The notes under the pieces: generated by a model
Database searches by the model: none
What the model saw: only the letters and a program-made list of their open reading frames with translations
Told to the model about the DNA's origin: nothing
Translations under genes and position numbers: made by a program
Source: Chelativorans sp. Marseille-P2723
GTDB lineage: Bacteria > Pseudomonadota > Alphaproteobacteria > Rhizobiales > Rhizobiaceae
Direction of reading: 5' to 3'
Assembly: GCF_902809845.1 (NCBI RefSeq)
Contig: NZ_CADDWI010000013.1
Span: 310,001 to 374,000 of the forward strand
Length of the DNA stretch: 64,000 nt
Shown: piece by piece, positions 36,423 through 57,626 of the stretch
Layout: every line of letters starts with the position of its first letter
Numbering within the stretch: the stretch's first letter is position 1

Positions 36423-36477
36423 CTTTCCTGCGGTTAATTGACCTCATCGATGCTACGCTCGTGGTGACTATGCCTTA

Positions 36478-36651: not shown

Positions 36652-36672
36652 TCGTATAATCGTATACGATTA
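36652..36672. promoter_or_regulatory. GntR operator, site 1
   Basis: TAATCGTATACGATTA (36657-36672) is a perfect 16-bp palindrome preceded by TTCGTA, ending 24 bases before the start of the ABC ATPase gene. The same word occurs at 44071, 51309 and 53112. GntR proteins of the FCD/FadR branch bind GTATAC-centred palindromes, and the only GntR gene nearby is at 51362. The position at the expected promoter suggests repression. Confidence 0.7.
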
Positions 36673-36696
36673 CCGTGTTAGCAGGGCGGCTCGCGC

Positions 36697-37674
36697 ATGA
36701 CACAACCAGTACTCGAAGTTCAGAACCTGCGGGTTTCGATAGGACGCACCACGATCGTCGATGGAGTATCTTTCTCGCTTAGCGAGCGCGAGGTTGTAGG
36801 GATTGTCGGTGAATCGGGCAGCGGGAAAAGTGTTTCATCGCTTGCGCTTATGCGTCTCTTGCCACGCCATGCGATGATCGAGGCGGACAAACTGACCCTC
36901 ATGGGCGAGAACCTGCTTGCAGCAAGTGAGCGACGCTACGAGCAGCTCCGCGGCGCGGTGATGTCAATGATATTTCAGGAGCCTATGACAGCGCTCAATC
37001 CGGTACTTACCGTCGGGGAGCAGGTTATCGAGACGGTCCGTAGGCATCAGGGCATGAGCAGGAGCCAAGCGCGCCGGTACGCCATCGATATCCTGGCGCG
37101 GGTGGGAATTCCAGCACCGTCGCAGCGCGTCGACGATTATCCACATCAGTTGTCGGGCGGGATGCGCCAGCGTGCGATGATTGCAATTGCGCTCGCCTGC
37201 AATCCGCGCGTTCTGATAGCAGACGAGCCAACCACCGCGCTGGACGTGACGATTCAGGCCCAGATCCTTGAACTCCTCCAGGACCTGCAGGAAGAGTATC
37301 GCATGGGTACTATCATGATCAGCCATGATCTCGGCGTGGTCTCTTCGTTCACCGACCGGGTTCTAATCATGTATGCCGGCAAGGTAGTGGAGGATGCGGC
37401 AGCGGAAGAGATGTTTGAGCGGCCCCGCCATCCCTACACAGAAGGCCTGTTGGCGAGCATTCCCTCAAGCGAAGAGGACGTAGAGCGACTTTACGCAATT
37501 CCCGGCACTGTGCCGCCGCCCTTTGATCTGCCGCCGGGGTGCCGCTTTGAGCCGCGCTGCCGTCATGCCCGCCCACCTTGCAGCGAGGCACAACCATCCT
37601 TGATGGAATGTGCCCCGGATCACCGGGCGGCGTGCATCCGAAATACTGGCTACCGCTTCGAAGGGAGACAATGA
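36697..37674 (+). CDS. Oligopeptide-type ABC ATPase (DppD/OppD-like)
   Basis: Cytoplasmic ATPase of 325 residues for a peptide/nickel/opine-type importer: Walker [10 protein letters not shown]-loop [10 protein letters not shown], signature LSGGMRQR, Walker [13 protein letters not shown] and the H-loop SHDLGVV, plus the C-terminal Cys-rich oligopeptide extension ([15 protein letters not shown]) that may bind an iron-sulfur cluster in this family. It overlaps the next ATPase gene by ATGA. No permease or binding protein is adjacent; the SBP-permease set at 47.8-51.3 kb lacks ATPases and has the same operator, so the two groups likely form one transporter. Confidence 0.9.
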
Positions 37675-38645
37675 CAGAAGCAAGACCCCTGCTGCGCGTA
37701 GACGCACTGCGTAAGGAATTCACCGTCAGTTCCGGCTTGTTCGCAAAGCCCCGCACAATACGTGCGGTGAGTGACGTTTCGTTCTCCATAATCGCGGGCG
37801 AGACGCTCGGCCTTGTCGGCGAAAGCGGCTGCGGCAAGACGACCGTCGGCCGGCTGATTCTCAATCTGATAGAACCCACGGCCGGGCTTGTCGAGTTTGA
37901 TGGGACTGACCTCCGTGCACTCGACGCGAGTCAGATGCGCGCTATGCGGCGGGATCTGCAGATCGTCTTTCAGGATCCGCTTGGCGCGCTCAATCCCCGG
38001 ATGACTGTCGGGGAGTTGATCATGGAGCCGCTCGTCATTCACGGTGTGGGAGACAATGTGGACCGCCAGCAGAGATTGGGAAAGCTATTGTCGCTGGTAG
38101 GACTAGCCAGCTACCATGCTGGCCGTTTCCCACACGAGTTCTCAGGGGGCCAGCGGCAGCGCATTTGCATTGCGCGCGCGCTTGCCCTGAACCCGCGATT
38201 CATAGTGTGTGACGAAGCAGCATCCGCGCTTGACGTGTCGATACAGGCTCAGACCCTGAACCTGCTCCAGGATCTCAAGGCCGAGCTTGGGCTGACCTAT
38301 CTCTTCATTAGCCATGATCTCGGTGTGATCCGACATATCTCGGACAGGGTGATCGTGATGTATCTCGGCCGGGTAATGGAAAGCGGTACGAAACACCAGA
38401 TATTCCGTTCCACCGCCCACCCCTACACGCGCGCACTTTTGGGTGCTGTGCCGTCGCGCAAACATGGCAAGATGCGCTTCAACGCCTTGAAGGGCGAGCT
38501 GCCAAATCCGGCTAATCCGCCTGAAGGGTGTCGCTTTAACACGCGTTGCCCGATGGTGAGGGATATCTGCCGGACTGCGCCTCCGCCATTGATGAAGCTG
38601 GAGGACGGCCACGAAGCTGCCTGCCACTTCGCCGGACAGATCTGA
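37671..38645 (+). CDS. Oligopeptide-type ABC ATPase (DppF/OppF-like)
   Basis: Second ATPase of the pair, 324 residues: Walker [10 protein letters not shown]-loop [13 protein letters not shown], signature FSGGQRQR, Walker [13 protein letters not shown] (ALD preceded by AAS instead of the usual PVS), H-loop SHDLGVI, and the C-terminal [15 protein letters not shown] segment. The ATG at 37671 overlaps the previous stop. The gene ends 22 bases before an IS630 copy, so any following genes of the original operon may have been displaced by the insertions that now occupy 38.67-40.21 kb. Confidence 0.9.
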
Positions 38646-38667
38646 GTATTACGGCCGTCAGCGTTCC

Positions 38668-39181
38668 TAGAGTCTTTCATGTTTTGACGGAAGCGTATCC
38701 GGCGTTTGCGAGGTAGTTTGCGCATTCGCCGGGTTCGATGGTTGAGACGAGGTGCCCGATGTGACGCCATGTGTCCTCGACGGTTCGTTTCTGGGCATGG
38801 CGCATCCAGTGCTTGATCTTGGCAAAGGCCTGTTCGATCGGGTTGAGGTCTGGTGAATAGGGCGGCAGGAACCAGAGCCTGGCGCCGGCCGCCCGGATTG
38901 AAGCGCTAACGGTAGCCGACTTGTGGGAACCCAAATTGTCCATAACGACGATGTCGCCGGGTTTGAGGACCGGCACGAGCTGCTGCTCAACATAGGCCCG
39001 GAAGCGCAGCGCAGCGCGCCCCACGAAGGTCAGCGTGCGTCCAGTGACCGTGCGGGGCAAAGCCGCGCAGGCGCTTGCCGCTGTCATAAGATGCTGGCCT
39101 CCCCTCCAGCCAACATCTTGAAACACAAAAAGGACCCCGATGGGAATCCCAACCGATTCAGACAAAGAATGAATTGCTCTA
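38668..39181 (-). mobile_element. Internally deleted IS630 element (copy 2)
   Basis: Both outer ends match copy 1 (8289-9339) exactly in position (TAGAGTCTTTCATG at the left, TA at 39180-39181 at the right), but the element is only about 514 bases. At least two internal deletions remove the HTH domains, the first catalytic aspartate and the region around the programmed A run. The remaining minus-strand frame at 38677-39165 still encodes [14 protein letters not shown] and [13 protein letters not shown]. It could only move with transposase supplied by another copy, like a young MITE. Confidence 0.82.
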
Positions 39182-39182
39182 G

Positions 39183-40213: not shown

Positions 40214-40304
40214 CTAGACCGTGAGGCGGTTTCGGCCGGCATCATGGTCTAGCAATTGATTTTATAGAATTTATACGACGCTGATTCCACCTGGCTGCAA
40301 CATG

Positions 40305-41480
40305 TTAGAGCGCCGGCGTTTTGTAAAGAAGCTTGCCACCGACTCGAATCTCGGTGTCAACGAGGTAGGAAGCGATACCGGAAACATTGACCTCCATGCC
40401 GAGGCCGGGCGCCTCCGGTGCGCAGATATACCCGTTTCCATCACGCTGGATCTGATTTGTGGTAATCGCGACAGCCAACGGCTTGAGGGCTGCCGGATAC
40501 TCGCAGATGCGGCTATCGGCAAGACCCGCGAAAGGTTGCATCGAGGCGGATAGAGCAAGATGCGATGTAAACGTGTGGTTCACATAAGTAGCGCCCTGCG
40601 CGACGGCCAGATCAGCCACCCTCTTGGCCGGCCCGATGCCACCGATCCGGCCACAGTCGATCTGGACGAAGCCGATATTGGCATATTCGAGGAGGTGAGC
40701 AGCCATATGGAAATTGTGTGCCGCCTCGCCACCTGCCATGCGCACCTTGGCTCCCTTTTCGGAAAGCGCGCGATAAGCAGCGAGGGCGCCGGCATGGAAC
40801 GGCTCTTCCAGCCATAACACGCTTGCCTCATCCAGAGAGGGAAGACGTTCCCCGGCAGCGGCGATATTATCGCCAAAGATCTGGCCGACATCGACCATTA
40901 GGTCAGCTTCGCGGCCAAGCCCCTCCCGCGCAGCGGCGAACTGGTCGGCATCGCTGCGGGCGTCACCGCGGCCAATCGGTCCCCAACCGAATTTGGCGGC
41001 AGAGAAGCCGTCTTTCACAGCTCGCCTCGCACGCTCCAGGGTCGTTTGCGGCGTATCGCCGAAGAGAAGGGATGCGTAAGGCGTTTTGGCGCACGAATGA
41101 TCATAGCCAAGAATGTGCCAGACCGGTTCGCCGAGCTTGCGGCCCAGAAGGTCCCATAGCGCCATCTCAATACCCGAAAGAATATGTGGCGCTTGCAGGA
41201 GGTCCATAGAGTTATACCCGACCAATGCGCTGATACGCGCGATGTCGGCGGGGTCGTTCAATTTCTGGCCGATGACGGACTCACCGACCGGACGGCATAC
41301 CCCGTGCGACTTTGGACAAACGAAGGCGGCTATGGAAGGCAGCGGCGCTGCTTCGCATTCGCCCCAGCCTACGAACCCACCGGCGCTGACGCGTACCAGC
41401 AGGGCATCCTGGCTACCGTCGGCTTCGTCGGTGACCTCCGGCATTGACAGGTAAAAAAGATCAACATCCTCAATCTTCAT
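40305..41480 (-). CDS. Enolase-superfamily (MR/MLE) enzyme A
   Basis: A 391-residue mandelate racemase/muconate lactonizing enzyme-type protein. Metal ligands are D197 (MVDVGQ), E225/E226 (WLEEPF) and E252 (AGGEAAH); a candidate base is the lysine K163 in KFGWGPIGR and a histidine in VNHTFTSH. Such enzymes abstract a proton alpha to a carboxylate, for example in sugar-acid dehydration or racemisation. The GWGPxGR motif is shared with MR/MLE enzyme B at 44147 (KIGWGPFGR), marking one subfamily. It is the last gene of the operon aspartoacylase-like, M81 peptidase, MR/MLE, 12 bases after the M81 stop. Function is not known. Confidence 0.83.
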   Translation of the reverse strand: MKIEDVDLFYLSMPEVTDEADGSQDALLVRVSAGGFVGWGECEAAPLPSIAAFVCPKSHGVCRPVGESVIGQKLNDPADIARISALVGYNSMDLLQAPHILSGIEMALWDLLGRKLGEPVWHILGYDHSCAKTPYASLLFGDTPQTTLERARRAVKDGFSAAKFGWGPIGRGDARSDADQFAAAREGLGREADLMVDVGQIFGDNIAAAGERLPSLDEASVLWLEEPFHAGALAAYRALSEKGAKVRMAGGEAAHNFHMAAHLLEYANIGFVQIDCGRIGGIGPAKRVADLAVAQGATYVNHTFTSHLALSASMQPFAGLADSRICEYPAALKPLAVAITTNQIQRDGNGYICAPEAPGLGMEVNVSGIASYLVDTEIRVGGKLLYKTPAL

Positions 41481-41492
41481 GCTGCGTTCCGT

Positions 41493-42989
41493 TTATAATC
41501 GACGATAGACGATACCTTGCGGCTCGAATGCCTTGATGTCGTCCAGCGGAAACATCGGGCGTGCGCAAATGGTGTGCCCCAGACGGGGAATGTCGGCTGA
41601 GGTTGCGCCGGCGACGTCGATGTTGAAGTTCTTCTCCACCCATTGGTCGTACATATGGTACTCGGTGTGTGGGGATTTCACGACGATCAGGTCGAAATCG
41701 ACGGGGTCGAGGCCGTTTGCATAATACATGGCGCGGTCGAACAGGCTTACCGAACGCGACATCACTACGATCGTAAAGTTTTCGAACTCGAGCACAGCGG
41801 TTGGACCCGCATCAAGCGGAATTTTCATTGTTTCGAGACTGGCACGACCGTCTGACAGGAGCTTGACCTTAACGCGGATGTCTAATGGCTGGAACCGTAG
41901 CGGATCCATCGCACCACCAAGCTTCACGTCGACAATCGCGCCGACACCGGCCCGATGGGCTGTCGCGGCCACCGCGGGATCAACGATCTGCAGAAGCGCG
42001 CGTTTCCGGTATCCATGCTCAATAAGTCCACGCAGAATGGAATTGGAATCGCCGGTCGCGCCGGATGAGGTAGCATCTGCCGCGTCGGTGAAGCAGACGG
42101 GGCCTTCGATCGTCCGGGCCTGCGCAATCGCCCGTTCGAGCGAAATGAGCTTGCCTTGCATTCTGTGTCGCATTGGCCAGAATTCACCAGCGATGCGCTC
42201 GGCCTCGCCTCGTGCCGTCGCCTCATCGCCATCTGTCACTACGATCACCTGACTGCAAAGTTCCGGTACGTCGGTGAATGGATTACCAATCATAATTCCG
42301 GCGGAAAGAGCCCTGCCCTCGCGCTCAAGCCGCTGACACTCGCGGATAAGGTCGCCGTAGCAGCCTGTTCGCGTGATAAGCTCATCACCGCGCACAAGCG
42401 CAGGAATGACAACACGGGCGACGATGGGCGCCTGCTGTTTTGACAGAAGGTTAAGCAGCAGCATGGCTGCACGCGCTCCTGTTTCTGCGAAATCGATATG
42501 CGGATAGGTGTGATATATGGCTATGCCATCGACTTGGCGGATCATTCGCTCGGTCAGGATGCCGTGCAGATCCAACGAGATGACAATCGGTATGTTGGGG
42601 CCCGCCATCTCACGAAAGCGTTTGAGCAGGTATCCTTCCGGATCAAGCTCGCCGTCGGCTCCCATGGCACCGTGCAGCGAGACGAAAATGCCGTCTACCT
42701 CCTCGACATGGGATCTGACGGCTTCCAGTATCTGCTTGCTGAGCCGGTCCCAACCGGTCCGAGACAACAGTCCGGCGCTTCCCGCTCGCGCGGCAATAGC
42801 AGGAACGACTTCAAAATCCGGCTTGGCTTCGAAGACCCTCAGAGCGCCGCCAATAGCCGTGTTCCTGCCCCTATGCCGATAAAGCTCTTCGCCCTCTTCT
42901 ATCTCGAAATAGTCGTACTCGGATTGAACGGGATTGAACGAGGAGATTTCCTGCATGCACTCCACGATGAGGATTTTCTTCTTCATCAT
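41493..42989 (-). CDS. M81-family metallopeptidase (MlrC-like)
   Basis: A protein of about 498 residues related to MlrC, the zinc peptidase that finishes microcystin breakdown. The N-terminal DUF1485 part has SLHGAMGA, SLDLHG and IYHTYPHIDFAETG, which supply the metal histidines and aspartates; the C-terminal MlrC part follows with TDAADATSSGATGDSN and VVKSPHTEYHMY. The usual ETNTFSP near the N-terminus is QEISSFNP. Members occur in many catabolic clusters and probably cut unusual peptide or amide bonds. I start it at ATG 42989, two bases past the stop of the preceding gene; a TTG at 42995 is also possible. Confidence 0.82.
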   Translation of the reverse strand: MMKKKILIVECMQEISSFNPVQSEYDYFEIEEGEELYRHRGRNTAIGGALRVFEAKPDFEVVPAIAARAGSAGLLSRTGWDRLSKQILEAVRSHVEEVDGIFVSLHGAMGADGELDPEGYLLKRFREMAGPNIPIVISLDLHGILTERMIRQVDGIAIYHTYPHIDFAETGARAAMLLLNLLSKQQAPIVARVVIPALVRGDELITRTGCYGDLIRECQRLEREGRALSAGIMIGNPFTDVPELCSQVIVVTDGDEATARGEAERIAGEFWPMRHRMQGKLISLERAIAQARTIEGPVCFTDAADATSSGATGDSNSILRGLIEHGYRKRALLQIVDPAVAATAHRAGVGAIVDVKLGGAMDPLRFQPLDIRVKVKLLSDGRASLETMKIPLDAGPTAVLEFENFTIVVMSRSVSLFDRAMYYANGLDPVDFDLIVVKSPHTEYHMYDQWVEKNFNIDVAGATSADIPRLGHTICARPMFPLDDIKAFEPQGIVYRRL

Positions 42990-42991
42990 CT

Positions 42992-44041
42992 TCAACCTGC
43001 TGCCTCACTCGACCAATCGTCCTGGTAGTCCTCCATGACGATCGCGACTGCATCGCCGCGCGCCACGCGACCAGGTCCGGCTCCGAACCACACGATACCG
43101 TCCTTCCCGTAGGTTAGTTCGATGGGGTCGGCATCCACATCCTCGATAAAGTGGAGATAGCCAGCAATCTCGCCTGCCCGAACTTCTTCGCCGGCATAGT
43201 GGGCCGGCTCGAACAATCCGCCCTTTGGCGCGAAGACATATGACGCGGGTTCCCGCACCATCTTGTGCGCGGTACAGGCCGCCCCGTCCTTCTGCGCCGT
43301 TTCAGGACGGCCCTCGATAACCCCCATATGTTTCAAAATGTTGTAGCAGCCCCGTCTTCCGATACGTACGCCCTCGATATTCACGCGGCCCCAGCCGCCA
43401 AGTTCGGTCCCGAGCGAAATTATGCCCCGCCTCTCCACACAGGAGGTGAAGGTAGAGTCCTCATCGACACCGCCGAACACCACATTGTAGGGGGCGCCGA
43501 AAGCCGCCGCCGCGGCCAGCGTTTTTCTACGGATCTCGTCATCGGCGACGTGATGCATGTTCGTGGAAAGCGCGGAATCGAAGGAATGGCCCGCAGTGTG
43601 CATATCGATCGATATGTCTGCCATGGGCAGGATCACGCTGTCGAGGAAGTGCGCCAGCATCTGGCTGAACGTCCCTTTCGGATTTCCGGGGAAGCACCGA
43701 TTGATATCCCAACCGTCTACCGGTGACAGACGCGTGTCTGCCAGAATGCTGGGGATATTAACGGCCGACATCATGATCACGCGGCCTTGGACCTGCTCCG
43801 GTCGCAATTCCTGCGCGAGGCGCGAGATGGCGATCGGGCCTTCGTATTCGTCGCCGTGCAGGCCGCCGGTGAAGAGAACCGTTGGACCCGACCCGTTCTT
43901 CACGACCACTATCGGAATTTCAACCGTTCCCCAGCCGGAATTATTGCGGGACAGAGGGGCGCGCGCATAACCGGCCTGACGTCCCTCCTTGTCGAAATCG
44001 ATGGGGCAAACGATGCGGCTCTTCGCCGAGTTAGCGGTCAT
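42992..44041 (-). CDS. Aspartoacylase/succinylglutamate desuccinylase-family protein
   Basis: Zinc carboxypeptidase-fold enzyme of 349 residues (AstE/AspA family) that would remove an acyl group from an amide or a C-terminal residue. Zinc ligands are visible as GGLHGDEYEG (H and E) and IDMHTAGHSFD (H); DINRCFPG supplies the family Asn-Arg pair, and TELGGWG holds the catalytic glutamate region. The C-terminal domain (FEPAHYAGEEVRAGEIAGYLH) is the biotinyl-like fold of this family. The ATG at 44041 has GGAGAGGA upstream; the longer in-frame start at 44104 would cover the operator. It is first in its operon, next to operator site 2. Confidence 0.86.
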   Translation of the reverse strand: MTANSAKSRIVCPIDFDKEGRQAGYARAPLSRNNSGWGTVEIPIVVVKNGSGPTVLFTGGLHGDEYEGPIAISRLAQELRPEQVQGRVIMMSAVNIPSILADTRLSPVDGWDINRCFPGNPKGTFSQMLAHFLDSVILPMADISIDMHTAGHSFDSALSTNMHHVADDEIRRKTLAAAAAFGAPYNVVFGGVDEDSTFTSCVERRGIISLGTELGGWGRVNIEGVRIGRRGCYNILKHMGVIEGRPETAQKDGAACTAHKMVREPASYVFAPKGGLFEPAHYAGEEVRAGEIAGYLHFIEDVDADPIELTYGKDGIVWFGAGPGRVARGDAVAIVMEDYQDDWSSEAAG

Positions 44042-44070
44042 GGCGTCAAATTCCTCTCCGGATACTTGTG

Positions 44071-44090
44071 TCGTATGATTGTATACGATA
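44071..44090. promoter_or_regulatory. GntR operator, site 2
   Basis: TCGTATGATTGTATACGATA contains the core ATTGTATACGAT (44078-44089). It lies between the divergent aspartoacylase-like gene (start 44041) and MR/MLE gene B (start 44147), so one site could control both operons. It differs from site 1 by only a few bases. Confidence 0.7.
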
Positions 44091-44146
44091 TTGATCCGTG
44101 TCAAGGAGTCATCTTCCGCACATTCGCATCACGGAGAAGAACAAGC

Positions 44147-45346: not shown

Positions 45347-45361
45347 AAGAGACGAAACGCC

Positions 45362-46123
45362 ATGGCACTTATCCAGCGCAATGCGATCGATCTGACTGGC
45401 CGCATAGCGGTCGTAACGGGCGCAGCACAAGGCATAGGTCGCGCGGTGGCCGCGCGGCTGATATCCTCGGGTGCGCAGGTAGCCTTGTGGGACCGGGACG
45501 CCGACCTGGTGGAGCAGAGCGCCAGGGAACTGGGGAAAGCCGCGTCATTCCAGGTCGTCGATCAGGTCGACTATGAGGCAGTGACAGCGGCTGCGCAAAA
45601 GGACGAACAGCGCTTCGGGCGCATAGACATACTCGTTGCCAATGCCGGCATCGCCGGCGCCAACGCGCCGGTAGCCGATTATGACGTCGATGAATGGAAA
45701 CGCATTATCGACGTGAACCTCAACGGACCGTTCCATTGCTGCAAGGCGATTCTGCCGGGGATGATCTCGCGTGGGTACGGCCGCATCGTGAATGTGGCCT
45801 CGATCGCTGGCAAAGAAGGCAATCCAAATGCGGCAGCATACTCGGCCTCGAAGGCCGCCGTGATCGCGCTTACCAAATCCATTGGAAAGGAAACCGCCGG
45901 AACCGGTCTTTCGGTCAACTGCGTAACGCCCGCTGCTGCGCGTACGAGCATCTTCGATCAGATGTCGCAGACGCACATCGATTATATGCTTTCGAAGATT
46001 CCACGCGGACGATTTCTCGAAGTCGAAGAGGTGGCTGCGATGATCGCCTGGCTGGTCAGCGAGGAAAACAGCTTCACCACAGGAGCCGTATTTGATCTCT
46101 CCGGCGGACAGGCCACTTACTGA
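45362..46123 (+). CDS. SDR, probable 2-keto-3-deoxy-sugar-acid dehydrogenase
   Basis: NAD-type short-chain dehydrogenase of 253 residues: TGAAQGIG loop, LWDRDAD after the second strand, LVANAGIAG, catalytic serine in VASIAG and YSASK. It is encoded between an MR/MLE dehydratase-like enzyme and an FAH hydrolase, exactly where the 2-keto-3-deoxy-L-fuconate dehydrogenase stands in the fucose route, and the paralogue at 28300-29046 once had an FAH gene behind it too. The function is inferred from context; the sequence itself only proves an SDR. Confidence 0.86.
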   Translation: MALIQRNAIDLTGRIAVVTGAAQGIGRAVAARLISSGAQVALWDRDADLVEQSARELGKAASFQVVDQVDYEAVTAAAQKDEQRFGRIDILVANAGIAGANAPVADYDVDEWKRIIDVNLNGPFHCCKAILPGMISRGYGRIVNVASIAGKEGNPNAAAYSASKAAVIALTKSIGKETAGTGLSVNCVTPAAARTSIFDQMSQTHIDYMLSKIPRGRFLEVEEVAAMIAWLVSEENSFTTGAVFDLSGGQATY

Positions 46124-46135
46124 AGGATATCCTGT

Positions 46136-46981
46136 ATGAAACTTGCACGCGTTGGGGAACCGGGACTAGAAAAACCAGCGATCATTCACACTGATGGCTC
46201 GATCCGTGATCTGTCGAATGTAGTCAGAGACATTTCCGGCCAGACTTTGACGCCGGAGGGCCTGCAGTCGCTACGTTCGGTGGACACGGGTTCACTGCCA
46301 CTGGTGGACAGCGATATTCGATATGGCCCCTGCGTCGGCGGCGTCGGGAAGTTTATTTGCATCGGACTGAACTATGCCGATCATGCAGCGGAATCCGGTG
46401 CACCGGTACCTACCGAGCCGATCATCTTCATGAAAGCAACGAGTGCAATTTGCGGGCCAAACGATACCGTTCTGATTCCGCGCGGTTCCGTCAAAACCGA
46501 TTGGGAGGTCGAACTGGGCGTCGTCATCGGCAAGCCTGGCAAATATATCCGCGAGGCTGATGCTCTCGCCCATGTTGCCGGTTATTGCGTGATCAACGAC
46601 ATCTCCGAGCGAGAATTCCAGCTTGAGCGTGGTGGAACCTGGGACAAGGGCAAGGGCTGCGATACGTTCGGCCCGATTGGGCCCTGGATGGTGACGGCCG
46701 ATGAGGTCTCGAATCCGGGCGACTTAGAGATGTGGCTGGAGGTTGACAGCAAGCGCTATCAGCACGGATCGACTCGAACCATGATTTTTGGCATTGCGCA
46801 ACTCATCAGCTATGTCAGCCGCTTCATGAGCCTGCAGAGCGGCGACATCATCTCTACCGGCACTCCACCGGGTGTCGGGATGGGCCAGAAGCCGCCAGTC
46901 TATTTGAAACCGGGACAGGTCATGCGCCTTGGAATTGAAGGACTGGGTGAACAACAGCAGCGGGTCGCGGCAGACGCTTGA
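46136..46981 (+). CDS. FAH-family hydrolase, diketo-deoxy-acid hydrolase-like
   Basis: Fumarylacetoacetate-hydrolase-fold enzyme of 281 residues, most like the 2,4-diketo-3-deoxy-L-fuconate hydrolase/ureidoglycolate-lyase-type group. Seen: KFICIGLNYADHAAESG (substrate loop), PIIFMKATSAICGPNDTV, metal ligands in WEVELGVVIG and INDISEREFQ, KGCDTFGPIGPW, and the closing GDIISTGTPPGVGMG. The reaction would be hydrolytic C-C cleavage of a 2,4-diketo acid to pyruvate and a small acid such as lactate. It starts 12 bases after the SDR stop and converges with the next SDR (27-base gap). Confidence 0.88.
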   Translation: MKLARVGEPGLEKPAIIHTDGSIRDLSNVVRDISGQTLTPEGLQSLRSVDTGSLPLVDSDIRYGPCVGGVGKFICIGLNYADHAAESGAPVPTEPIIFMKATSAICGPNDTVLIPRGSVKTDWEVELGVVIGKPGKYIREADALAHVAGYCVINDISEREFQLERGGTWDKGKGCDTFGPIGPWMVTADEVSNPGDLEMWLEVDSKRYQHGSTRTMIFGIAQLISYVSRFMSLQSGDIISTGTPPGVGMGQKPPVYLKPGQVMRLGIEGLGEQQQRVAADA

Positions 46982-47008
46982 AGCGGCAATGCCGGATAAT
47001 GGGGGCGG

Positions 47009-47731
47009 TCATATAGACCAACCGCCATCAATCGCATAGGTCTGGCCAGTCGTATAGGTCGCCTGTGCAAGATGGACCGCCAGATCTGCTATTTCCTCGG
47101 CAGTGCCAAGGCGGCCCATCGGCTGCCTCGCGATAAAGGCCTGCCGCGCAGCGGCATAGTCGCCCTGCGCCCGCATCCGGTCCTGTAGCGACGGACTGTC
47201 TACCGTCCCCGGGCATATAGCATTGCATCGGATACCGCGCGTCACGAAGTCGGCCGCGACCGACTTCGTCAGGCCGATCACAGCCGCCTTGGTGGTACCA
47301 TAGACAAAGCGGTTTGGCGCCCCTTTCAAGCTTGAAACGACGGATGCCACATTGATGATGCAGCCGTCGCGATGTTCGAGCATCGGGGGCAAGAAGGCAC
47401 GAATCGAACGTATCATTCCTTTGACGTTGATGTCGCATGCGAGATCAAACTCGTCCCAGGTCATGTCCAATACCGAGCCCGAATGAACGACTCCAGCGCA
47501 GTTGACGAGGGTATGGATCCTCCCCAGTTCTGCCGCAGCTTCCCGGACCGCCTTATCGTCGCGGACATCGAGACGGCGCACCTGTATGCCCTGCCGCTGG
47601 TGAAGGTCATTTAGCAGGGCTGTGTCAATGTCGGTCGCGATAACGCGGGCGCCGGCCTGCGCGAACGCGACTGCGATAGCGCGCCCAATGCCCTGCCCTG
47701 CGGCGGTGACCAGCACCGATTTATCATTCAT
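47009..47731 (-). CDS. SDR of the DHRS6/BDH2 type
   Basis: Short-chain dehydrogenase of 240 residues, strikingly like the human DHRS6 group: TAAGQGIGRA loop, ATDID acidic site (NAD), LVNCAGVVHSGSVLD, SVVSSLKGAPNRFVYGTTKAAVIGLTKSV with the catalytic serine, tyrosine and lysine, and the CPGTVDSPSLQDR segment. This group includes 2-keto-3-deoxy-L-fuconate 4-dehydrogenases, 4-oxoproline reductase and 3-hydroxybutyrate dehydrogenases, so it is another candidate for the deoxy-acid oxidation step. It is the last gene of the SBP-permease operon. ATG 47731 has GAGG upstream; ATGs at 47743 and 47746 are possible. Confidence 0.85.
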   Translation of the reverse strand: MNDKSVLVTAAGQGIGRAIAVAFAQAGARVIATDIDTALLNDLHQRQGIQVRRLDVRDDKAVREAAAELGRIHTLVNCAGVVHSGSVLDMTWDEFDLACDINVKGMIRSIRAFLPPMLEHRDGCIINVASVVSSLKGAPNRFVYGTTKAAVIGLTKSVAADFVTRGIRCNAICPGTVDSPSLQDRMRAQGDYAAARQAFIARQPMGRLGTAEEIADLAVHLAQATYTTGQTYAIDGGWSI

Positions 47732-47760
47732 TTTTTGCCTCATCATAACACTGTATGTCT

Positions 47761-48675
47761 TTAGCCGGCTTCCCGCTCGGATCGCATGCGAGGATCGGTC
47801 ACGTCGCGCAGACCGTCACCCATCAAGTTTAAGCCAAGGACGGCGGCGGCAATGGCCAGGCCGGGGAAAAGAGCAATCCAGCCAGCATCCTGAAGATAGT
47901 TGCGGCCCTCAGCGATGATGTTGCCCAGCGAGGGCGCAGGTGGTGGTGGCCCCACGCCGAGAAAGCTGAGGATGGCTTCGGCAAGGATCGATACCGCGAA
48001 GACGAAGGTCAACTGCACGATCAGGGGCGAAAGCGAGTTGGCGAGTATGTAGCGGAAGATAATTCGCCCGTGCCCGGCTCCTACCGCAAGCGCAGCTTCC
48101 ACATAGGGCAGTTCACGAACGACCAGTACGCTTGATCGCACGACGCGGGCCGTCCTCGGAGTGAAGGTGATGGTGAGCGCGATCACAGCGTTCAGGGCGG
48201 AAGGTCCAAGTGCTGCGGCAAGAGCGATCGCCAACAGCACGCCGGGAAATGCCATCAGCCCATCCATGATCCGCATCAGCAGATTATCTAGCCATCTGAC
48301 ATAGCCGGCGAGCAAACCGAAGAAGATGCCAAGTACGCCTGTGGCTACGACAACCGCAAGACCTATGCCCAGCGACACACGGGTGCCATGGATCACACGG
48401 CTGAAAATATCACGGCCAAACCCATCCGTGCCGAACCAATGGTCGAGGGACGGCGGCATGAGGATACTGCGATAGTCGCTCTTGTTAGGATCGTAGGGCG
48501 CGACGAAGTTTGCGCAGAGGGCGAGCATCACAATCATCAGGAACAGCGCGAAGCCAATCTTGAATGACCCGTGCGCGGCCAGACGCCTCATGAACCGAGC
48601 CCAGCCCCGACGACGTGCCTTGGCGAGCTCGCGCTTGATCGCACGGACATCCGCGATTTCGGTATCAGCGACCAT
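47761..48675 (-). CDS. ABC permease, DppC type
   Basis: Inner-membrane permease of 304 residues with an N-terminal cytoplasmic tail, about six helices, the FGTDGFGRDIFSRVIHGTRVSL entry typical of DppC/OppC, and the ATPase-contact loop EAALAVGAGHGRIIFRYILANSLSPLI. The C-terminus ends in GLNLMGDGLRDVTDPRMR. Its start overlaps the DppB-type gene by 11 bases. The ATG 48675 has CGAGGG upstream. No ATPase genes are in this operon; the pair at 36.7-38.6 kb shares the operator. Confidence 0.9.
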   Translation of the reverse strand: MVADTEIADVRAIKRELAKARRRGWARFMRRLAAHGSFKIGFALFLMIVMLALCANFVAPYDPNKSDYRSILMPPSLDHWFGTDGFGRDIFSRVIHGTRVSLGIGLAVVVATGVLGIFFGLLAGYVRWLDNLLMRIMDGLMAFPGVLLAIALAAALGPSALNAVIALTITFTPRTARVVRSSVLVVRELPYVEAALAVGAGHGRIIFRYILANSLSPLIVQLTFVFAVSILAEAILSFLGVGPPPPAPSLGNIIAEGRNYLQDAGWIALFPGLAIAAAVLGLNLMGDGLRDVTDPRMRSEREAG

Positions 48676-49612
48676 GGCGGACCCTCGGATCGAGCCAGCC
48701 ATAAGCCAGATCGACCATGATATTGACGAAGACGAACACGGCGGCAGTTATCAGCAGGCCACCCTGGATGATCGGGTAATCACGCCGCTGAATTGCTCCA
48801 ATGATCAGGCGGCCGACGCCCGGCAGCGAAAACACTGATTCGATTACCACCGCGCCTCCGAGGAGCACCCCAGTCATGACGCCGATCACGGTGATGATCG
48901 GGATCAAGGCGTTTCGCAAGGCGTGCTTGAAGATAACCGTCCGACGGACCATGCCCTTCGCTTTCGCAGTGCGTATGTAGTCCTGGCTCATTACCTCCAG
49001 CATGGCAGAGCGTGTCATGCGGGCAATGACGCCCATTTGGGTGATGGCCAATGCCAAGGCAGGGAGCGTCATGGATTTTGCCCACCCCCAGAAGTTTTCA
49101 GACGCCGGCACGTAGCCGCCACTCGGAAACCAACCCAGTCCGACGGCGAAAACCGAGATCAAAACGAGCGCAAACCAGAAATCCGGGATGGAAAGTCCAA
49201 ACAACGCTAGGGACATGGAGCCTTGATCCAACCAGGTTCCATGTTTGGTGGCAGCCAGGATGCCAAGCAGTACGCCCAGGACGATCGCCAGGACGAGCGC
49301 CAAACCGGCAAGCGAGAGGGTGACTGGTAGCCGTTCGAGCACCGCCTCGGTGACGGGCCGGTTGAGCAGGAAGGATTGTCCCAGATCGCCCTGCAACAGG
49401 CGGCCGTACCAGCGCAGGGCCTGTTCATGCAGGGGGCGATCAAGGCCCAGCCGTTCACGAATCTCGGCCCGCTGAATCTCGGTGGAATCGCTGCCCGCGA
49501 TCTCGGCTGTCACGTCGCCAGGAACGATTGCGATGATGACGAAGCTGACGAGGGACACGACAAACAGTACAGGTAATGCGCTCGCGAGCCGCCGCAGGAG
49601 AAAATAGATCAA
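48665..49612 (-). CDS. ABC permease, DppB type (TTG start)
   Basis: Inner-membrane permease of about 315 residues: RRLASALPVLFVVSLVSFVIIAIVPGD N-terminus, LGLDRPLHEQ, the GDLGQSFLL segment and the ATPase-contact EAA loop (MLEVMSQDYIRTAKAKGMVRRTVIFKHALRNALIPI). I start it at TTG 49612, which has AGGAGG eight bases upstream; the TTG at 49630 lacks a site and no suitable ATG exists nearby. It pairs with the DppC-type permease and the binding protein encoded upstream. Confidence 0.88.
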   Translation of the reverse strand: MIYFLLRRLASALPVLFVVSLVSFVIIAIVPGDVTAEIAGSDSTEIQRAEIRERLGLDRPLHEQALRWYGRLLQGDLGQSFLLNRPVTEAVLERLPVTLSLAGLALVLAIVLGVLLGILAATKHGTWLDQGSMSLALFGLSIPDFWFALVLISVFAVGLGWFPSGGYVPASENFWGWAKSMTLPALALAITQMGVIARMTRSAMLEVMSQDYIRTAKAKGMVRRTVIFKHALRNALIPIITVIGVMTGVLLGGAVVIESVFSLPGVGRLIIGAIQRRDYPIIQGGLLITAAVFVFVNIMVDLAYGWLDPRVRHGR

Positions 49613-49688
49613 TGCTTGCCCTCCTGCCAAAAGGCCTGGCCGGGCGGTTTTCCCCCGCCCAGCAACGAATCAAGGTTGTTGAACCGCT

Positions 49689-51251
49689 CTACTCGGCAAG
49701 CCAGACATCGTAGACGCGCGGGAAGCGGAACGGTTTGAACCCTTCGACATTGGCCCTAGTGGCTTGCATGAGGCCCGTCTCGCCCAGTTTCACAACACCG
49801 AAGAACTCGTAGAGACGCTGCTGGATGCGTGCGAAAACTTCCTTACGCCCTTCCTCGCTATCGGTTGAGATAAGTTCTTCATAGAGTTGATCGAGCTGAT
49901 CGTCAGTTGCACGAAAATGGGGCTGGTCTCCCGTCAATGTCGAGATAAGTGCCACGGGGCCGAGATATGGTTCGATGCCCATCATCAGGGTCCAGCCGTT
50001 CCACCCGCTATCCTGGAGGCGAATATTGAGCGCTGTCGGCCAGTCGACCTGATTGACAGTTGCATTAATACCTACTGCCTGGAGTTGCTCGGCGATGACG
50101 ATTGCTGCCTTGCCATGTTCGGGAATGTTCGAATCGGTCAAGATCGAGAATGGTTCGTTGTTGTAGCCAGCCTCTGCCAGTAACTGCTTGGCGCGCTCGC
50201 TATCGGCAATGTTGTAATATTCCTGCCCGATGTCGCCGGCATCATAAGGCGAACCCTCATACATCCAGCCGTGATAGAGTTGGAACAAGCCCTCCGTAGC
50301 TATGCCCATGACCTCTTCATTATTAAGAGCGACCTGGACGGCTTCGCGGAATTTAGGATTGTCACTAGGTGCTTCCTTCATGTTGAACACGAAGGTGAGA
50401 AACGCCCATGGCATATTCTCATAGAGCTTGATGTTCTCGTTCGAGGCTAGACGACGTGCGGTGGGAACAGGAATCTGTTCCAGCATCTGGATCTCGCCGG
50501 TCTCCAGGGCAGCAACTGCAGCGCCAGGTTCGGGGATGACACGGAAAGTCACGGTGTCGAGATAGGCGGTCTTGCGCCCGCCAAAACCGTCGATGCCTTC
50601 GAAATTCTCGTTGGGAGTGTAGTCCTCGAACCGCTCCAGCGTCACGTGGCTGTCCGGAACGTATTCCACGAATTTATAGGGTCCCGTGCCGATGAATTCG
50701 ATCTCGTTCGGTTCCTTTGCTGCTTCCTCGGCCGGAATGATCACTGCAGGCGCGCGAGGCGAGGCGAAGGCTTCCAGAAAAGTGGGGCTTGGTTCATCGA
50801 AGGTTAGAGTGACCTCGTAGTCTCCAGTGACCTCGATTGATTTGACTGGTTCCAGCATCGTGCCTGTACCGCCGTGCTGCTTATAGCGGTCGAGAGAGGC
50901 CTTGACGTCCTCTGCGGTCATTTCCTTTCCATTGTGGAACATGACGCCCTGGCGCAGAAGGAAGCGATAGGTCAGACCGTCCTGCGATATCTCGACATCT
51001 TCCGCCAAGATAGGAATGGGACGAATGTCTTCACTGAAACCATACAAGGTTTCGTAGATGTTCATGGTGATATTGCGAGAGGCTTGGGACGTTGTCACCA
51101 TGGCATCTAGACTGGGAGGGTTGGAGCTTTGCGCAACGATGAGATTGCCGCCAGCAGTCTGAGCGTTTGCGACGCTCACATCGACAGATATGATCGTCAC
51201 TGCTCCGAAAAGTGCACCGAACAGTTTCCTCCGGCTGAATGTTCTTTGCAT
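49689..51251 (-). CDS. Oligopeptide-type (family 5) solute-binding protein A
   Basis: Periplasmic receptor of 520 residues, SBP_bac_5 family. The N-terminus FSRRKLFGALFGAVTIIS followed by a cleavage site at VANA-QTA has a twin-arginine look (SRRKLFG). Typical segments are IYETLYGFSEDI, PILAEDVEISQDGLTYRFLLRQGVMFHNGKE, and TGPYKFVEY. It is a clear paralogue of the receptor at 53207-54781 (same PVPTARRL, NNEEVMGIATEGLF segments). It is first in an operon of SBP, permease, permease and SDR, with operator site 3 upstream. Confidence 0.9.
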   Translation of the reverse strand: MQRTFSRRKLFGALFGAVTIISVDVSVANAQTAGGNLIVAQSSNPPSLDAMVTTSQASRNITMNIYETLYGFSEDIRPIPILAEDVEISQDGLTYRFLLRQGVMFHNGKEMTAEDVKASLDRYKQHGGTGTMLEPVKSIEVTGDYEVTLTFDEPSPTFLEAFASPRAPAVIIPAEEAAKEPNEIEFIGTGPYKFVEYVPDSHVTLERFEDYTPNENFEGIDGFGGRKTAYLDTVTFRVIPEPGAAVAALETGEIQMLEQIPVPTARRLASNENIKLYENMPWAFLTFVFNMKEAPSDNPKFREAVQVALNNEEVMGIATEGLFQLYHGWMYEGSPYDAGDIGQEYYNIADSERAKQLLAEAGYNNEPFSILTDSNIPEHGKAAIVIAEQLQAVGINATVNQVDWPTALNIRLQDSGWNGWTLMMGIEPYLGPVALISTLTGDQPHFRATDDQLDQLYEELISTDSEEGRKEVFARIQQRLYEFFGVVKLGETGLMQATRANVEGFKPFRFPRVYDVWLAE

Positions 51252-51308
51252 CACCTACCTCCCACCGAGATGTTTGCCTAATGATCTCTAGTCTATTAAT
51301 TGTCTTTA

Positions 51309-51328
51309 TCGTATAATCGTATACGATT
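51309..51328. promoter_or_regulatory. GntR operator, site 3
   Basis: TCGTATAATCGTATACGATT is identical over 19 bases to site 1 and includes the 14-bp perfect palindrome AATCGTATACGATT (51315-51328). It lies in the short gap between the divergent SBP-A gene (start 51251) and the GntR gene (start 51362), so the regulator probably controls both its own gene and the transporter. Confidence 0.75.
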
Positions 51329-51361
51329 TGCGCGTGTCAATCAAGGAGTATGGAAAGGGTC

Positions 51362-52123
51362 ATGAGCCCTAGAGAATCCAAAAAGAACGAAACGGGCGGC
51401 ATGAAGAAGCTGGTTCCGCTCCAGGCCAAGACGCTCGTTGACCAGGTTGTGGACGCTATCGTGGAAGCAACAGCGACAGGGGTGTTTTTGCCTGGCGACC
51501 GGGTCGTCGAGGCCGAAGTCGCCCGGTCGCTCAGTGTCAGCCGCGTACCTGTTCGTGAAGCTCTGCGGATACTCGAAAGTCAGGGCATCGTAGTCAATGA
51601 GCGCTATCGGGGCATGCGATTGATGGATGTTAGCGTCGATCGACTCGAAAAGATCCTCAAGGTGCGTACTGCTCTTGAGACGCTAGCGGTGCAGGAGGTG
51701 TTGCAAGCCAAGCAGGAACATCCAGATATCCTGGCGCCTCTGGAGGAGATCATGGAGCGATTGCATGAAGCCGTCCGGAAGGAGGATCCTTATGGTGTCG
51801 CCAGCCTGGACACGGAATTCCACCGCACACTTTGTCGCCTTTCCGGCAATGACGTTCTCGTTCGCATGTGGGAACCACTTTCAAGGCAGCTCACGATTAT
51901 ATTTGGCCTCTCGACCCTTCAGAAGAACCTCGACGTTATTGTCCAGGAGCATGATGAGCTGCTCACTGGGTTGAAAGCGGGAAACAGCGCCCAAATCGTC
52001 GAACTCGTCCGGGTGCATATTCTGGACTATAGTCGCGCACTCGACTACGAAGGCCTTGTCACTGCACGACGCTCAGAACGCAAGAAAATTTCGGCCGACG
52101 AAGCCCCCGCTCCGAGGGGTTGA
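51362..52123 (+). CDS. GntR-family (FCD) regulator of the cluster
   Basis: A 253-residue transcription factor with a winged helix (about 20-90: GVFLPGDRVVEAEVARSLSVSRVPVREALRILESQGIV, the GntR signature) and an FCD ligand-binding domain (about 100-235). The metal/ligand histidines of the FCD pocket are visible in DTEFHRTL, QEHDELL and RVHILDYS, so the inducer is probably a carboxylate. Operator site 3 lies just upstream, and three further near-identical sites front other operons. ATG 51362 follows GGAAAGG; ATG 51350 is an alternative. A hairpin terminator overlaps its 3' end. Confidence 0.92.
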   Translation: MSPRESKKNETGGMKKLVPLQAKTLVDQVVDAIVEATATGVFLPGDRVVEAEVARSLSVSRVPVREALRILESQGIVVNERYRGMRLMDVSVDRLEKILKVRTALETLAVQEVLQAKQEHPDILAPLEEIMERLHEAVRKEDPYGVASLDTEFHRTLCRLSGNDVLVRMWEPLSRQLTIIFGLSTLQKNLDVIVQEHDELLTGLKAGNSAQIVELVRVHILDYSRALDYEGLVTARRSERKKISADEAPAPRG

Positions 52124-52135
52124 CGTCGGCCTTTT
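52093..52135. terminator. Bidirectional hairpin terminator
   Basis: GGCCGACG (52093-52100) pairs with CGTCGGCC (52124-52131), with an inner CCCC/GGGG pairing, followed by TTTT. On the other strand the stem is followed by GAAATTTTC. It spans the stop codon of the GntR gene and lies just before the 3' end of the convergent D-2-hydroxyacid dehydrogenase gene, so it can serve both. Confidence 0.7.
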
Positions 52136-52142
52136 ACAAACA

Positions 52143-53078
52143 TTAGCCAGCAACCGGTGTCAAAAGTGCGCGGCTTTCGAAAAAGGCGGAGAGATTCGCC
52201 TTGACGAGGTCGCAGGCGTCTTCCCAGGTCTCGATTGTGCCGCCTCCGCGATGCGGCATCAGAACCACGTTTTCCAAGCTCATCAGGCGTTCGGGGACGA
52301 AAGGCTCGTGTTCGAATACGTCAAGCCCGGCGCCAGCAATTTCACCCTGCTCCAGCGCCTCGATCATCGCCTGTTCGTCTATCACGGCACCGCGAGAAAT
52401 ATTGACAACAATGCCCTCGGAGCCCAGCGCTTTAAGCACAGCACGATCAACGAGATGATGAGTTGCAGTACCACCGGGACATGCAACGACGAGAACATCC
52501 GCCCATGCTGCAAGTTCCGGCAGCGAGTTGAAATAGGTGTAGGCTTCGCTCTCCAGGGGCTTCCTGTTATGATAGCCGACCGGCATGTTGAACGCTGCCG
52601 CCCGTCTAGCGATTGCGCGACCGATCCTTCCCATGCCTAGAATGCCGACTTTGCGGTCCCCCACTTTCCGGACAAGCGGATAACTATTTTGGGTCCACTT
52701 GCCCGCCCTGACGAAGCGATCTCCGCGAAGAACATCCCGCGCTACCGCGAGGAGGAGCGCCATCGCCAGATCGGCCACGCATTCGTCAGTGACATCCGGT
52801 GTGTTGGTGACCGCAATGGACCTTCTCGCCGCGGCATCCATATCGACCTTATCATAGCCGGCACCGGCGTTAGCGATGAGTTCAAGGCGGGGTAGAGCAG
52901 CGATGAGTTCTGCTGAGACGGGCCCCGCAGCCACAAGCGCACGCACACGGGACCGGACCTGATCATTCAACCCGCCGGCATTACCGTCGGGAAGCCGGTG
53001 CAGGAAGAAGTCATCGGCAAACCGCTGAACATACCACTCCGGTCCCCCACCAACAAATACGATTTCCGGCTTGTCCAT
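52143..53078 (-). CDS. D-isomer 2-hydroxyacid dehydrogenase
   Basis: Cytoplasmic NAD(P)H-dependent 2-ketoacid reductase / 2-hydroxyacid dehydrogenase of 311 residues. Nucleotide motif GILGMGRIGRAIARRAAAFN, NRKP after the second strand (the arginine favours NADPH), NISRGAVIDEQAMIEAL with the substrate arginine, GLDVFEHEP with the catalytic glutamate, and PHRGGGT with the catalytic histidine. Most like glyoxylate/hydroxypyruvate/2-ketogluconate reductases. It is transcribed away from SBP-B across operator site 4, so it belongs to the GntR regulon. ATG 53078 has GGAGG upstream. Confidence 0.88.
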   Translation of the reverse strand: MDKPEIVFVGGGPEWYVQRFADDFFLHRLPDGNAGGLNDQVRSRVRALVAAGPVSAELIAALPRLELIANAGAGYDKVDMDAAARRSIAVTNTPDVTDECVADLAMALLLAVARDVLRGDRFVRAGKWTQNSYPLVRKVGDRKVGILGMGRIGRAIARRAAAFNMPVGYHNRKPLESEAYTYFNSLPELAAWADVLVVACPGGTATHHLVDRAVLKALGSEGIVVNISRGAVIDEQAMIEALEQGEIAGAGLDVFEHEPFVPERLMSLENVVLMPHRGGGTIETWEDACDLVKANLSAFFESRALLTPVAG

Positions 53079-53111
53079 GTCGTGCAACCTCCACTCAACT
53101 TCATTGACAAT

Positions 53112-53131
53112 CGTTAGATTGTATACGATTA
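53112..53131. promoter_or_regulatory. GntR operator, site 4
   Basis: TCGTTAGATTGTATACGATT carries the core ATTGTATACGAT (53119-53130) shared with site 2. It lies between the divergent hydroxyacid dehydrogenase (start 53078) and the five-gene ABC transporter operon (start 53207). Confidence 0.7.
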
Positions 53132-53206
53132 TTGTCCGCATACAACGGGGGTCTGTGGCGCAGGCACCGGATTGTATCAACCAAGAACGCACAGGGGATC
53201 AACGAC

Positions 53207-56612: not shown

Positions 56613-56613
<1 letters not shown>
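55741..56613 (+). CDS. ABC permease, DppC type
   Basis: Inner-membrane permease of 290 residues with the FGTDHYGRSIFSRVVTGTHLSL entry, the ATPase-contact loop SARLSGASDGRIIVKHVLPNSMAPV and the closing GLNLLGDGLRDVLDPRL. It starts within the end of the DppB-type gene and its stop overlaps the ATG of the next ATPase (TGATG), so the operon is tightly coupled. Confidence 0.9.

Positions 56614-57622
<1,009 letters not shown>

Positions 57623-57626
<4 letters not shown>

What the first reader, a model, noticed from the sequence alone, without database searches (positions are those of the whole stretch)
36652..53131. Four near-identical GTATAC palindromes define a GntR regulon
The 20-base word TCGTAT(A/G)AT(C/T)GTATACGAT(T/A), or a close version, occurs at 36652, 44071, 51309 and 53112 and I saw it nowhere else in the window. 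Each copy lies in front of an operon, three of them between divergent genes, and one directly upstream of the only GntR/FCD gene nearby (51362). This ties about seventeen genes, apparently without a pathway name, to one carboxylate-sensing repressor.
Basis: partly seen in the sequence, partly recalled or inferred. Interest (0 to 1): 0.75.

Follow-up and report, generated by a model that had tools for sequence, protein, structure and literature searches.

The report
GntR repressor regulon for sugar-acid use
Four copies of one short DNA word mark the switches of a gene set that probably imports and breaks down a sugar-acid compound under one GntR-type repressor; the regulon looks real but of a known kind, and its food molecule is still unknown.

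Summary
The word is at 36652, 44071, 51309 and 53111 and nowhere else in the window; in the 3.77 Mb genome its core ATYGTATACRAT is exact only there. A matrix built only from relatives' sites ranks the four first (26-35 bits; next independent place 6.9). Similar sites lie by the same genes in 15 of 19 loci with a relative of the regulator.

I read it as the local regulon of the GntR/FCD protein at 51350, covering 19 genes. The operator is a FadR-type palindrome, ATnGTATACnAT, with, in alphaproteobacteria, a third half-site ATCGTAT 8 bp upstream. It overlaps promoter-like elements: a leftward -35 hexamer stands near it at 10 of 15 divergent sites and 0 of 5 non-divergent ones (post hoc).

The genes encode two peptide-type importers, two metallohydrolases, two enolase-superfamily proteins and a dehydrogenase-hydrolase pair resembling 'Route III' sugar-acid breakdown. 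Two products have very close solved relatives, 2hzg and 3cdx, under generic names.

Verdict: real, well supported by comparison, a new member of a known kind. Substrate and effector are unknown; nothing was tested at the bench.

The parts
36652..36671 (+). operator site 1, in front of the two ATPase genes (no divergent gene)
   Evidence: 33.5 bits, matrix from relatives only
36697..37674 (+). peptide-type ABC transporter ATPase D1
   Evidence: ABC_tran, oligo_HPY
37668..38645 (+). peptide-type ABC transporter ATPase F1
   Evidence: ABC_tran, oligo_HPY
40305..41480 (-). enolase-superfamily (MR/MLE) protein, close relative of solved chain 2hzg
   Evidence: E 4.1e-195
41493..42995 (-). M81/MlrC-type metallohydrolase
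   Evidence: 3iuu, 1e-56
42992..44041 (-). AstE/AspA-type deacylase, close relative of solved chain 3cdx; start codon at 44041 chosen by me (the open frame begins at 44104)
   Evidence: E 8.1e-189
44071..44090 (+). operator site 2, between divergent deacylase and dehydratase operons
   Evidence: 33.5 bits
44075..44104 (-). leftward promoter-like pair TTGACA-18-AATCAT overlapping site 2
44147..45346 (+). enolase-superfamily sugar-acid dehydratase-like protein (MR_galD); start chosen by me
   Evidence: 3sjn, 7.3e-59
45362..46123 (+). SDR dehydrogenase SDR1, relative of 6d9y (putative L-2-keto-3-deoxyrhamnonate 4-dehydrogenase)
46136..46981 (+). FAH-family hydrolase, relative of L-2,4-diketo-3-deoxyrhamnonate hydrolase 8gsr
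   Evidence: E 5.6e-97
47009..47746 (-). second SDR dehydrogenase, last gene of the SBP1 operon
47761..48702 (-). ABC permease C1
48665..49630 (-). ABC permease B1
49689..51251 (-). family-5 solute-binding protein SBP1
51309..51328 (+). operator site 3, between divergent SBP1 operon and the regulator gene
   Evidence: 35.3 bits
51313..51340 (-). leftward promoter-like pair TTGACA-16-GATTAT overlapping site 3
51350..52123 (+). GntR/FCD regulator (start 51350 or 51362)
52143..53078 (-). D-2-hydroxyacid dehydrogenase; start chosen by me
53104..53132 (+). rightward promoter-like pair TTGACA-17-GATTAT overlapping site 4
53111..53130 (+). operator site 4 (2 mismatches), between divergent dehydrogenase and second transporter
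   Evidence: 26.0 bits
53207..54781 (+). family-5 solute-binding protein SBP2, 40% identical to SBP1
54807..58597 (+). second transporter: permeases B2, C2 and ATPases D2, F2
   Evidence: open frames; B2 and C2 by Pfam; D2 and F2 only by their matches to relatives' transporter ATPase genes

Best explanation
The four sites are operators of the GntR/FCD protein at 51350. They hold down a gene set, probably acquired horizontally, for importing a sugar-acid-containing compound and breaking it down. Shown by sequence: the sites, their exclusiveness in the genome, their recurrence beside the same genes in relatives, and promoter-like elements overlapping them. Inferred: a dimer binds the AT-n-GTATAC-n-AT palindrome, probably helped in alphaproteobacteria by a further contact at the half-site ATCGTAT 8 bp upstream. 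It thereby covers the -35/-10 region of promoters there, and it lets go when a carboxylate (a sugar acid or its 2-keto-3-deoxy product) binds the metal site of the FCD domain. The released genes make two ABC importers, hydrolases that free the sugar acid, dehydratases giving a 2-keto-3-deoxy acid, a 4-dehydrogenase, and a hydrolase that cuts the 2,4-diketo acid into pyruvate and a hydroxy acid. The stated confidence is for the regulator-site link with repression; the pathway reading is less certain (about 0.5).
For: Site scarcity: and (matrix trained on 17 relatives' sites, window excluded). Recurrence by the same genes. Motif and regulator occur together. Promoter overlap: where 3 of the 4 best-scoring pairs in 18 kb lie on the sites, and (10 of 15 divergent sites against 0 of 5 others). 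Operator of the FadR-subfamily type with 2-nt GT..AC spacing, extra half-sites at 7-12 nt known (PMC4494728, passages and section 17). A related FCD repressor binds ATGTATACAT, overlapping the -10 boxes of two genes (PMC7797058, passages). Invariant HTH arginines R65 and R69 and D154/H158/H201/H223 in a 10-sequence alignment. Route III enzymes: and PMC6336799 passages.
Against: No binding or expression data. Four of 19 loci with a GntR relative have no GTATAC site near a mapped regulon gene (L010, L017, L019, L023). G051 has a regulator relative but no site at up to 3 mismatches, as have two betaproteobacterial genomes. Relatives' sites were collected by searching for GTATAC, so its invariance is by construction. 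The promoter test was post hoc, allowed spacers of 14-21 bp (8 of the 10 hits have 16-18, one 19, one 20), used only the 21 alpha sites of 30, and orthologous sites are not independent. The total number of promoter-like pairs is what shuffles give (8 against 8.1). Forward promoters are weak: the -10 reading of TATRAT has no matching -35. The hydrolase misses the curated cut-off of its nearest named family (429 of 500 bits), and SDR1 here lacks an arginine that four orthologues keep. Site 4 is the weakest, and I did not find the dehydrogenase and second-transporter genes beside it in the relatives' stretches.
Confidence: 0.81

Rival explanations
1. The GntR protein activates, or both activates and represses, from these sites; the third half-site serves RNA polymerase recruitment at one of the two divergent promoters.
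For: The alpha sites have one orientation relative to the rightward gene (one of 21, G051 AspA, was oriented by gene direction because its half-site is poor). The half-site lies upstream of the core, and forward promoter elements are weak, as in activator-dependent promoters.
Against: The operator core lies inside the -35/-10 region of the leftward promoter-like pairs, a repressor's place; the FCD relative Atu1419 with this kind of site represses (PMC7797058 passages).
Confidence: 0.12
2. A different regulator, not the neighbouring GntR, uses the sites; the genome has 17 GntR-domain genes.
For: 17 GntR-domain genes in the genome; many GntR-family regulators share the NyGTNxACNy type of site (PMC4494728 passages).
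Against: Motif and this regulator occur together across distant genomes, including small plasmid clusters with only GntR, dehydratase, SDR, a sugar porter and one more gene.
Confidence: 0.05
3. The repeated word is a mobile or repeat element, or conserved promoter sequence, without regulator function.
For: Insertion-sequence-like remains lie inside the cluster (38667-40211; my reading of the open frames, no family search). Part of the word, TATRAT, looks like a -10 box.
Against: The window's four sites lie 32-84 bp from the start codons I assigned. Sites are conserved across classes with unrelated flanks, and the TCG of the half-site is kept in several sites where the TAT is not.
Confidence: 0.02

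Closest known systems
FadR subfamily (FCD domain) of GntR regulators; Atu1419 of Agrobacterium fabrum (PMC7797058, passages seen)
   Same: GntR plus FCD domains; short AT-rich palindrome with GT-2 nt-AC spacing (ATGTATACAT there, ATnGTATACnAT here); operator overlaps promoter boxes; local catabolic regulon
   Different: A third half-site is part of the site in alphaproteobacteria; other target genes; oligomer state untested
Additional half-sites beside GntR-family operators (PMC4494728, section 17 and passages read)
   Same: An extra box 7-12 nt from the palindrome centre; here 10.5 nt
   Different: Described there as weaker than the true half-sites; here at the third base of the half-site it is more constrained (C in 20 of 21 alpha sites) than either half of the palindrome (G in 14 of 21 on the right, no base above 9 of 21 on the left)
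Route III non-phosphorylating sugar-acid pathway (PMC6336799 passages; PMC11199699 passages and section 14)
   Same: Sugar-acid dehydratase, SDR 4-dehydrogenase and FAH-family hydrolase in one operon, near ABC transporter and regulator genes
   Different: Peptide-type importers and two metallohydrolases (M81, AstE/AspA-like) suggest a conjugate rather than a free sugar; substrate unknown; the hydrolase is only a remnant in Cereibacter and not found in the Martelella stretch
PhnR (TIGR03338) family of GntR regulators
   Same: Best-scoring named NCBIfam model for this protein
   Different: 115.8 bits against a cut-off of 271.5; no phosphonate gene among the cluster genes that I put through Pfam

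Membership tests
FadR-subfamily (FCD) GntR regulator | N-terminal GntR winged helix and C-terminal FCD domain over curated cut-offs | tested here: met
   GntR 47.8 (cut-off 27), FCD 84.1 (24.3)
FadR-subfamily (FCD) GntR regulator | operator of type NyGTNxACNy with x of 2-3 | tested here: met
   GT-AT-AC, x = 2; rule from PMC4494728
FadR-subfamily (FCD) GntR regulator | conserved Asp/His/His/His metal site for carboxylate effectors | tested here: met
   D154, H158, H201, H223 invariant in 10 sequences; that these are the metal ligands is recalled from FCD structures, not taken from a call and not measured
FadR-subfamily (FCD) GntR regulator | binds the operator and releases it on a ligand | not testable with these tools
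   needs EMSA or footprinting
PhnR regulators (TIGR03338) | score over the curated cut-off | tested here: not met
   115.8 of 271.5 bits
Atu1419-like tetrameric VanR regulators | tetramer in solution | not testable with these tools
Route III sugar-acid pathway | enolase-superfamily sugar-acid dehydratase in the operon | tested here: inconclusive
   superfamily met; best named equivalog, galactonate dehydratase, under its cut-off (184 of 311 bits); substrate open
Route III sugar-acid pathway | SDR 2-keto-3-deoxy-acid 4-dehydrogenase | tested here: inconclusive
   E 5.8e-86 to 6d9y, called a putative L-KDR 4-dehydrogenase in PMC11199699; the residue I take for R247 of 6d9y aligns with Q here but is R in 4 of 4 orthologues (numbering mapped by me, assuming an 8-residue tag)
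Route III sugar-acid pathway | 2,4-diketo-3-deoxy-acid hydrolase with His and Glu of the catalytic set | tested here: inconclusive
   E 5.6e-97 to 8gsr with the H-x-x-E pair kept in the alignment (the pair as catalytic from PMC6336799); NF053535 429 bits under cut-off 500

The most novel reading that the evidence does not exclude
The cluster is an undescribed catabolic pathway for a sugar-acid conjugate (for example a sugar acid amide-linked to an amino acid, or an opine-like compound) taken up by peptide-type importers. The regulator binds a three-half-site operator built into face-to-face promoters, so that one bound complex shuts two operons. The regulon would give a function to two solved but generically named protein families (2hzg, 3cdx).
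Probability: 0.35. Interest if true: 0.55.

Novelty: new member of a known kind. Interest (0 to 1): 0.36.

Why it matters
It ties together about 19 genes, several conserved but without a named substrate, into one testable pathway under one switch. It offers a clean promoter assay for finding the substrate. Very close relatives of two of its proteins have solved structures, and my searches found no paper that gives them a role. The cluster lies on plasmids in Cereibacter and Martelella, and a smaller relative sits on Klebsiella plasmids, so it looks like a portable nutritional trait.

Tried and rejected
Rejected: the idea that TATRAT inside the word is the -10 box of the rightward gene. No -35 at 16-18 bp: mean 2.43 of 6 matches against 2.36 in controls, over 30 sites. 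Corrected: the reverse-strand positions printed were off by 6; one search then searched the wrong range and found nothing (5 of 6 or better at 1 of 15 divergent sites), with the corrected range, gives 10 of 15. The range was chosen after seeing the pattern.

Led nowhere: 16S in this genome for naming the host (none found), so the host genus is not determined; a PDB-code literature search for 2hzg/3cdx (3 papers, listing only; one holds 2hzg once, the two with 3cdx are unrelated by title); searches for M81 function (44 papers, 20 listed; 779, 15 listed); a search for the cluster's gene names together (0 papers). That I know of no description of this regulon rests only on (95 papers, 20 listed; 2 papers) and 85 in an open-access library, mostly seen as listings. 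Class-wide and order-wide searches for the regulator (E up to 1e-50) found 1 of 385 and 5 of 297 genomes, own genome included, but scored at most 6 and 8 candidates per genome, so these are lower bounds.

Dropped rows: of 40 GTATAC places in relatives I used 26 and dropped 14: two from L002 (same genus as L021), one from L018 (same contig as L009), one inside a gene (L008), one in L017, two in L019, three in L022, four in L024. Two of the dropped ones, L017:18280 and L019:18147, look like true sites near unmapped genes. Of 18 plasmid records with a relative of the regulator I fetched 4. In one search (11 genomes or records, up to 3 mismatches; 8 have a match) four places lie off the cluster contigs: G599:C18:98 (2 mismatches), G599:C22:9639, G022:C23:388957 and G714:C249:20109 (3 each); I did not look at their genes.

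Full report
Observation. The 20-base word occurs four times in the window (36652, 44071, 51309 exact; 53111 with two mismatches) and in none of 100 shuffles. The genome (3,774,004 bases, 13 contigs; the window is C13:310001-374000) has exact ATYGTATACRAT only at these four places, with four further places at one mismatch, as many as the reversed control gives per strand. The longer pattern at up to 3 mismatches adds one 3-mismatch place at C13:56805. A weight matrix built from 17 sites of alphaproteobacterial relatives, with no window site in it, gives the four sites 35.3, 33.5, 33.5 and 26.0 bits in the window. The next place that does not overlap a site scores 6.9.

Surroundings. Site 36652 precedes two peptide-type ABC ATPases. 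Site 44071 lies between a leftward operon (AstE/AspA-like deacylase, M81 metallohydrolase, enolase-superfamily protein) and a rightward operon (enolase-superfamily dehydratase, SDR, FAH-family hydrolase). Site 51309 lies between a leftward operon (solute-binding protein, two permeases, SDR) and the GntR/FCD gene. Site 53111 lies between a D-2-hydroxyacid dehydrogenase and a second five-gene transporter. That is 19 genes. SBP2 is a paralogue of SBP1 (40% identity).

Relatives. In 15 of 19 distinct loci a GTATAC site lies within 400 bp of a mapped regulon gene; the misses are L010, L017, L019 and L023. Gene content varies. As far as the stretches reach, Nitratireductor, Martelella and Cereibacter keep most of the set. 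Elioraea (L004) and a Comamonadaceae genome (L007) keep importer, M81, both enolase-superfamily proteins and the regulator. Klebsiella plasmids keep only dehydratase, regulator, an SDR, a sugar porter and a sensory-rhodopsin-transducer-like gene, a family proposed to bind sugars in PMC2739507 (abstract and passages). The dehydrogenase and second transporter of site 4 were not found in this arrangement in the relatives' stretches. The regulator is absent from 15 of 15 same-genus genomes at E 1e-30, and a TerC fragment with four stops lies just left of the cluster. Both fit horizontal acquisition.

Motif and regulator together. Of 61 related genomes, 3 carry a regulator relative at E 1e-30 (G000, G022, G051) and 3 have the motif at up to 2 mismatches (G000, G022, G039). 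G039's single place is at the level of the reversed control (one place each in G039 and G042). In 11 genomes or records with a regulator relative, 8 have matches at up to 3 mismatches, mostly on the cluster's contig; G051 and the two betaproteobacteria have none, because their upstream half-site has diverged.

The operator. I aligned 30 sites, 4 of the window and 26 of relatives; 14 further GTATAC places were dropped (listed under Tried and rejected). Collection by GTATAC makes that hexamer invariant by construction. The flanking information is not by construction. The core is AT-n-GTATAC-n-AT: A at -3 in 29 of 30, T at -2 in 26, A at +7 in 30, T at +8 in 29. A further half-site ATCGTAT lies 8 bp upstream, with its C and G each in 20 of 21 alpha sites; the 4 gamma sites have TG there and the 5 beta sites neither. 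Its centre is 10.5 nt from the palindrome centre, inside the 7-12 nt range reported for extra half-sites of GntR regulators (PMC4494728 section 17). Where the box's TAT is changed (the window's fourth site, Gemmobacter and Cereibacter AspA/MR) the TCG stays, though not in G051, so protein contact is a better reading than promoter constraint.

Promoters. On the leftward strand a TTGAC hexamer (5 or 6 of 6 matches to TTGACA) stands 14-21 bp before a hexamer inside the operator in 10 of 15 divergent alpha sites and 0 of 5 non-divergent ones (chance 0.026 per site). Eight of the ten have spacers of 16-18 bp. One further alpha site of unclear class has none, and the 9 beta and gamma sites were not tested. 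The test was made after the pattern was seen and orthologous sites are not independent, so the contrast matters more than the p-value. A blind promoter scan of 36000-54000 gave 8 pairs (8.1 expected by shuffling); 3 of its 4 best, all TTGACA with 10 of 12 matches, lie on sites 2, 3 and 4. Rightward promoters are weaker, except at site 4. A bound protein would block the divergent pair; this is inference.

Regulator. GntR 47.8 and FCD 84.1 bits. HTH residues R65 and R69, and D154, H158, H201, H223, are invariant in 10 sequences, and the same columns hold in an 18-sequence alignment. It is not PhnR (under cut-off).

Pathway. SDR1 matches 9jve, 6d9y and 9kq1 (E 1e-84 to 1e-87); 6d9y is called the closest structure to L-KDR 4-dehydrogenases in PMC11199699 (section 14). 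The FAH protein matches L-2,4-diketo-3-deoxyrhamnonate hydrolase 8gsr (E 5.6e-97). With the dehydratase this is the Route III order of PMC6336799 (passages). The window's SDR1 ends SGGQATY where four of four orthologues have SGGRATY, so its substrate may differ. The M81 and AspA-like hydrolases and peptide-type importers suggest that the sugar acid arrives in a conjugate. SBP1's solved relatives include AgaA and the agrocinopine binder AccA beside peptide binders (that AgaA binds an opine is recalled), a lead only. The enolase-superfamily protein at 40305 and the deacylase at 42992 match 2hzg and 3cdx at E 4.1e-195 and 8.1e-189.

Conclusion. A real local regulon of a known kind with a well-defined operator. 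The substrate, the effector and the role of the third half-site are open and easily tested in Cereibacter sphaeroides. The host genus was not determined.

Noticed in passing
36315-36497: TerC gene fragment with four stop codons just left of the cluster, matching positions 1-58 of 178 of the family; two TerC matches without stops lie elsewhere in the genome. Probably marks the edge of the acquired segment.
   Followed up: partly
38667-40211: Remains of two insertion sequences (transposase-like open frames by my reading, no family search) between the ATPase genes and the rest of the cluster; the annotated Martelella and Cereibacter stretches have nothing between these genes.
   Followed up: partly
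L021:11182-11558: In Cereibacter sphaeroides the FAH hydrolase shows only as short matching pieces (85 and 13 residues) without an annotated gene; the Martelella stretch has no match, so another enzyme may finish the pathway there or the step is lost.
   Followed up: partly
46100-46120: SDR1 ends SGGQATY while four orthologues end SGGRATY; the arginine appears to be R247 of 6d9y, discussed as a likely substrate-binding residue in PMC11199699.
   Followed up: partly
L022:10612-15459 and L024:10621-15473: Klebsiella pneumoniae plasmids carry a small version: dehydratase, GntR, SDR, sugar porter and a sensory-rhodopsin-transducer-like gene, with GTATAC sites before the dehydratase/GntR pair and before the porter.
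   Followed up: partly
L019:18147 and L017:18280: Two well-formed sites about 8 kb from distant relatives of the regulator, beside genes that I did not map.
   Followed up: no
34178-35974: 598-residue open frame with no Pfam match at E 0.001.
   Followed up: no
58983-60799: Amidohydrolase-like gene and what looks like another ABC ATPase gene, leftward, just beyond the second transporter; no operator-like site in front of them.
   Followed up: no
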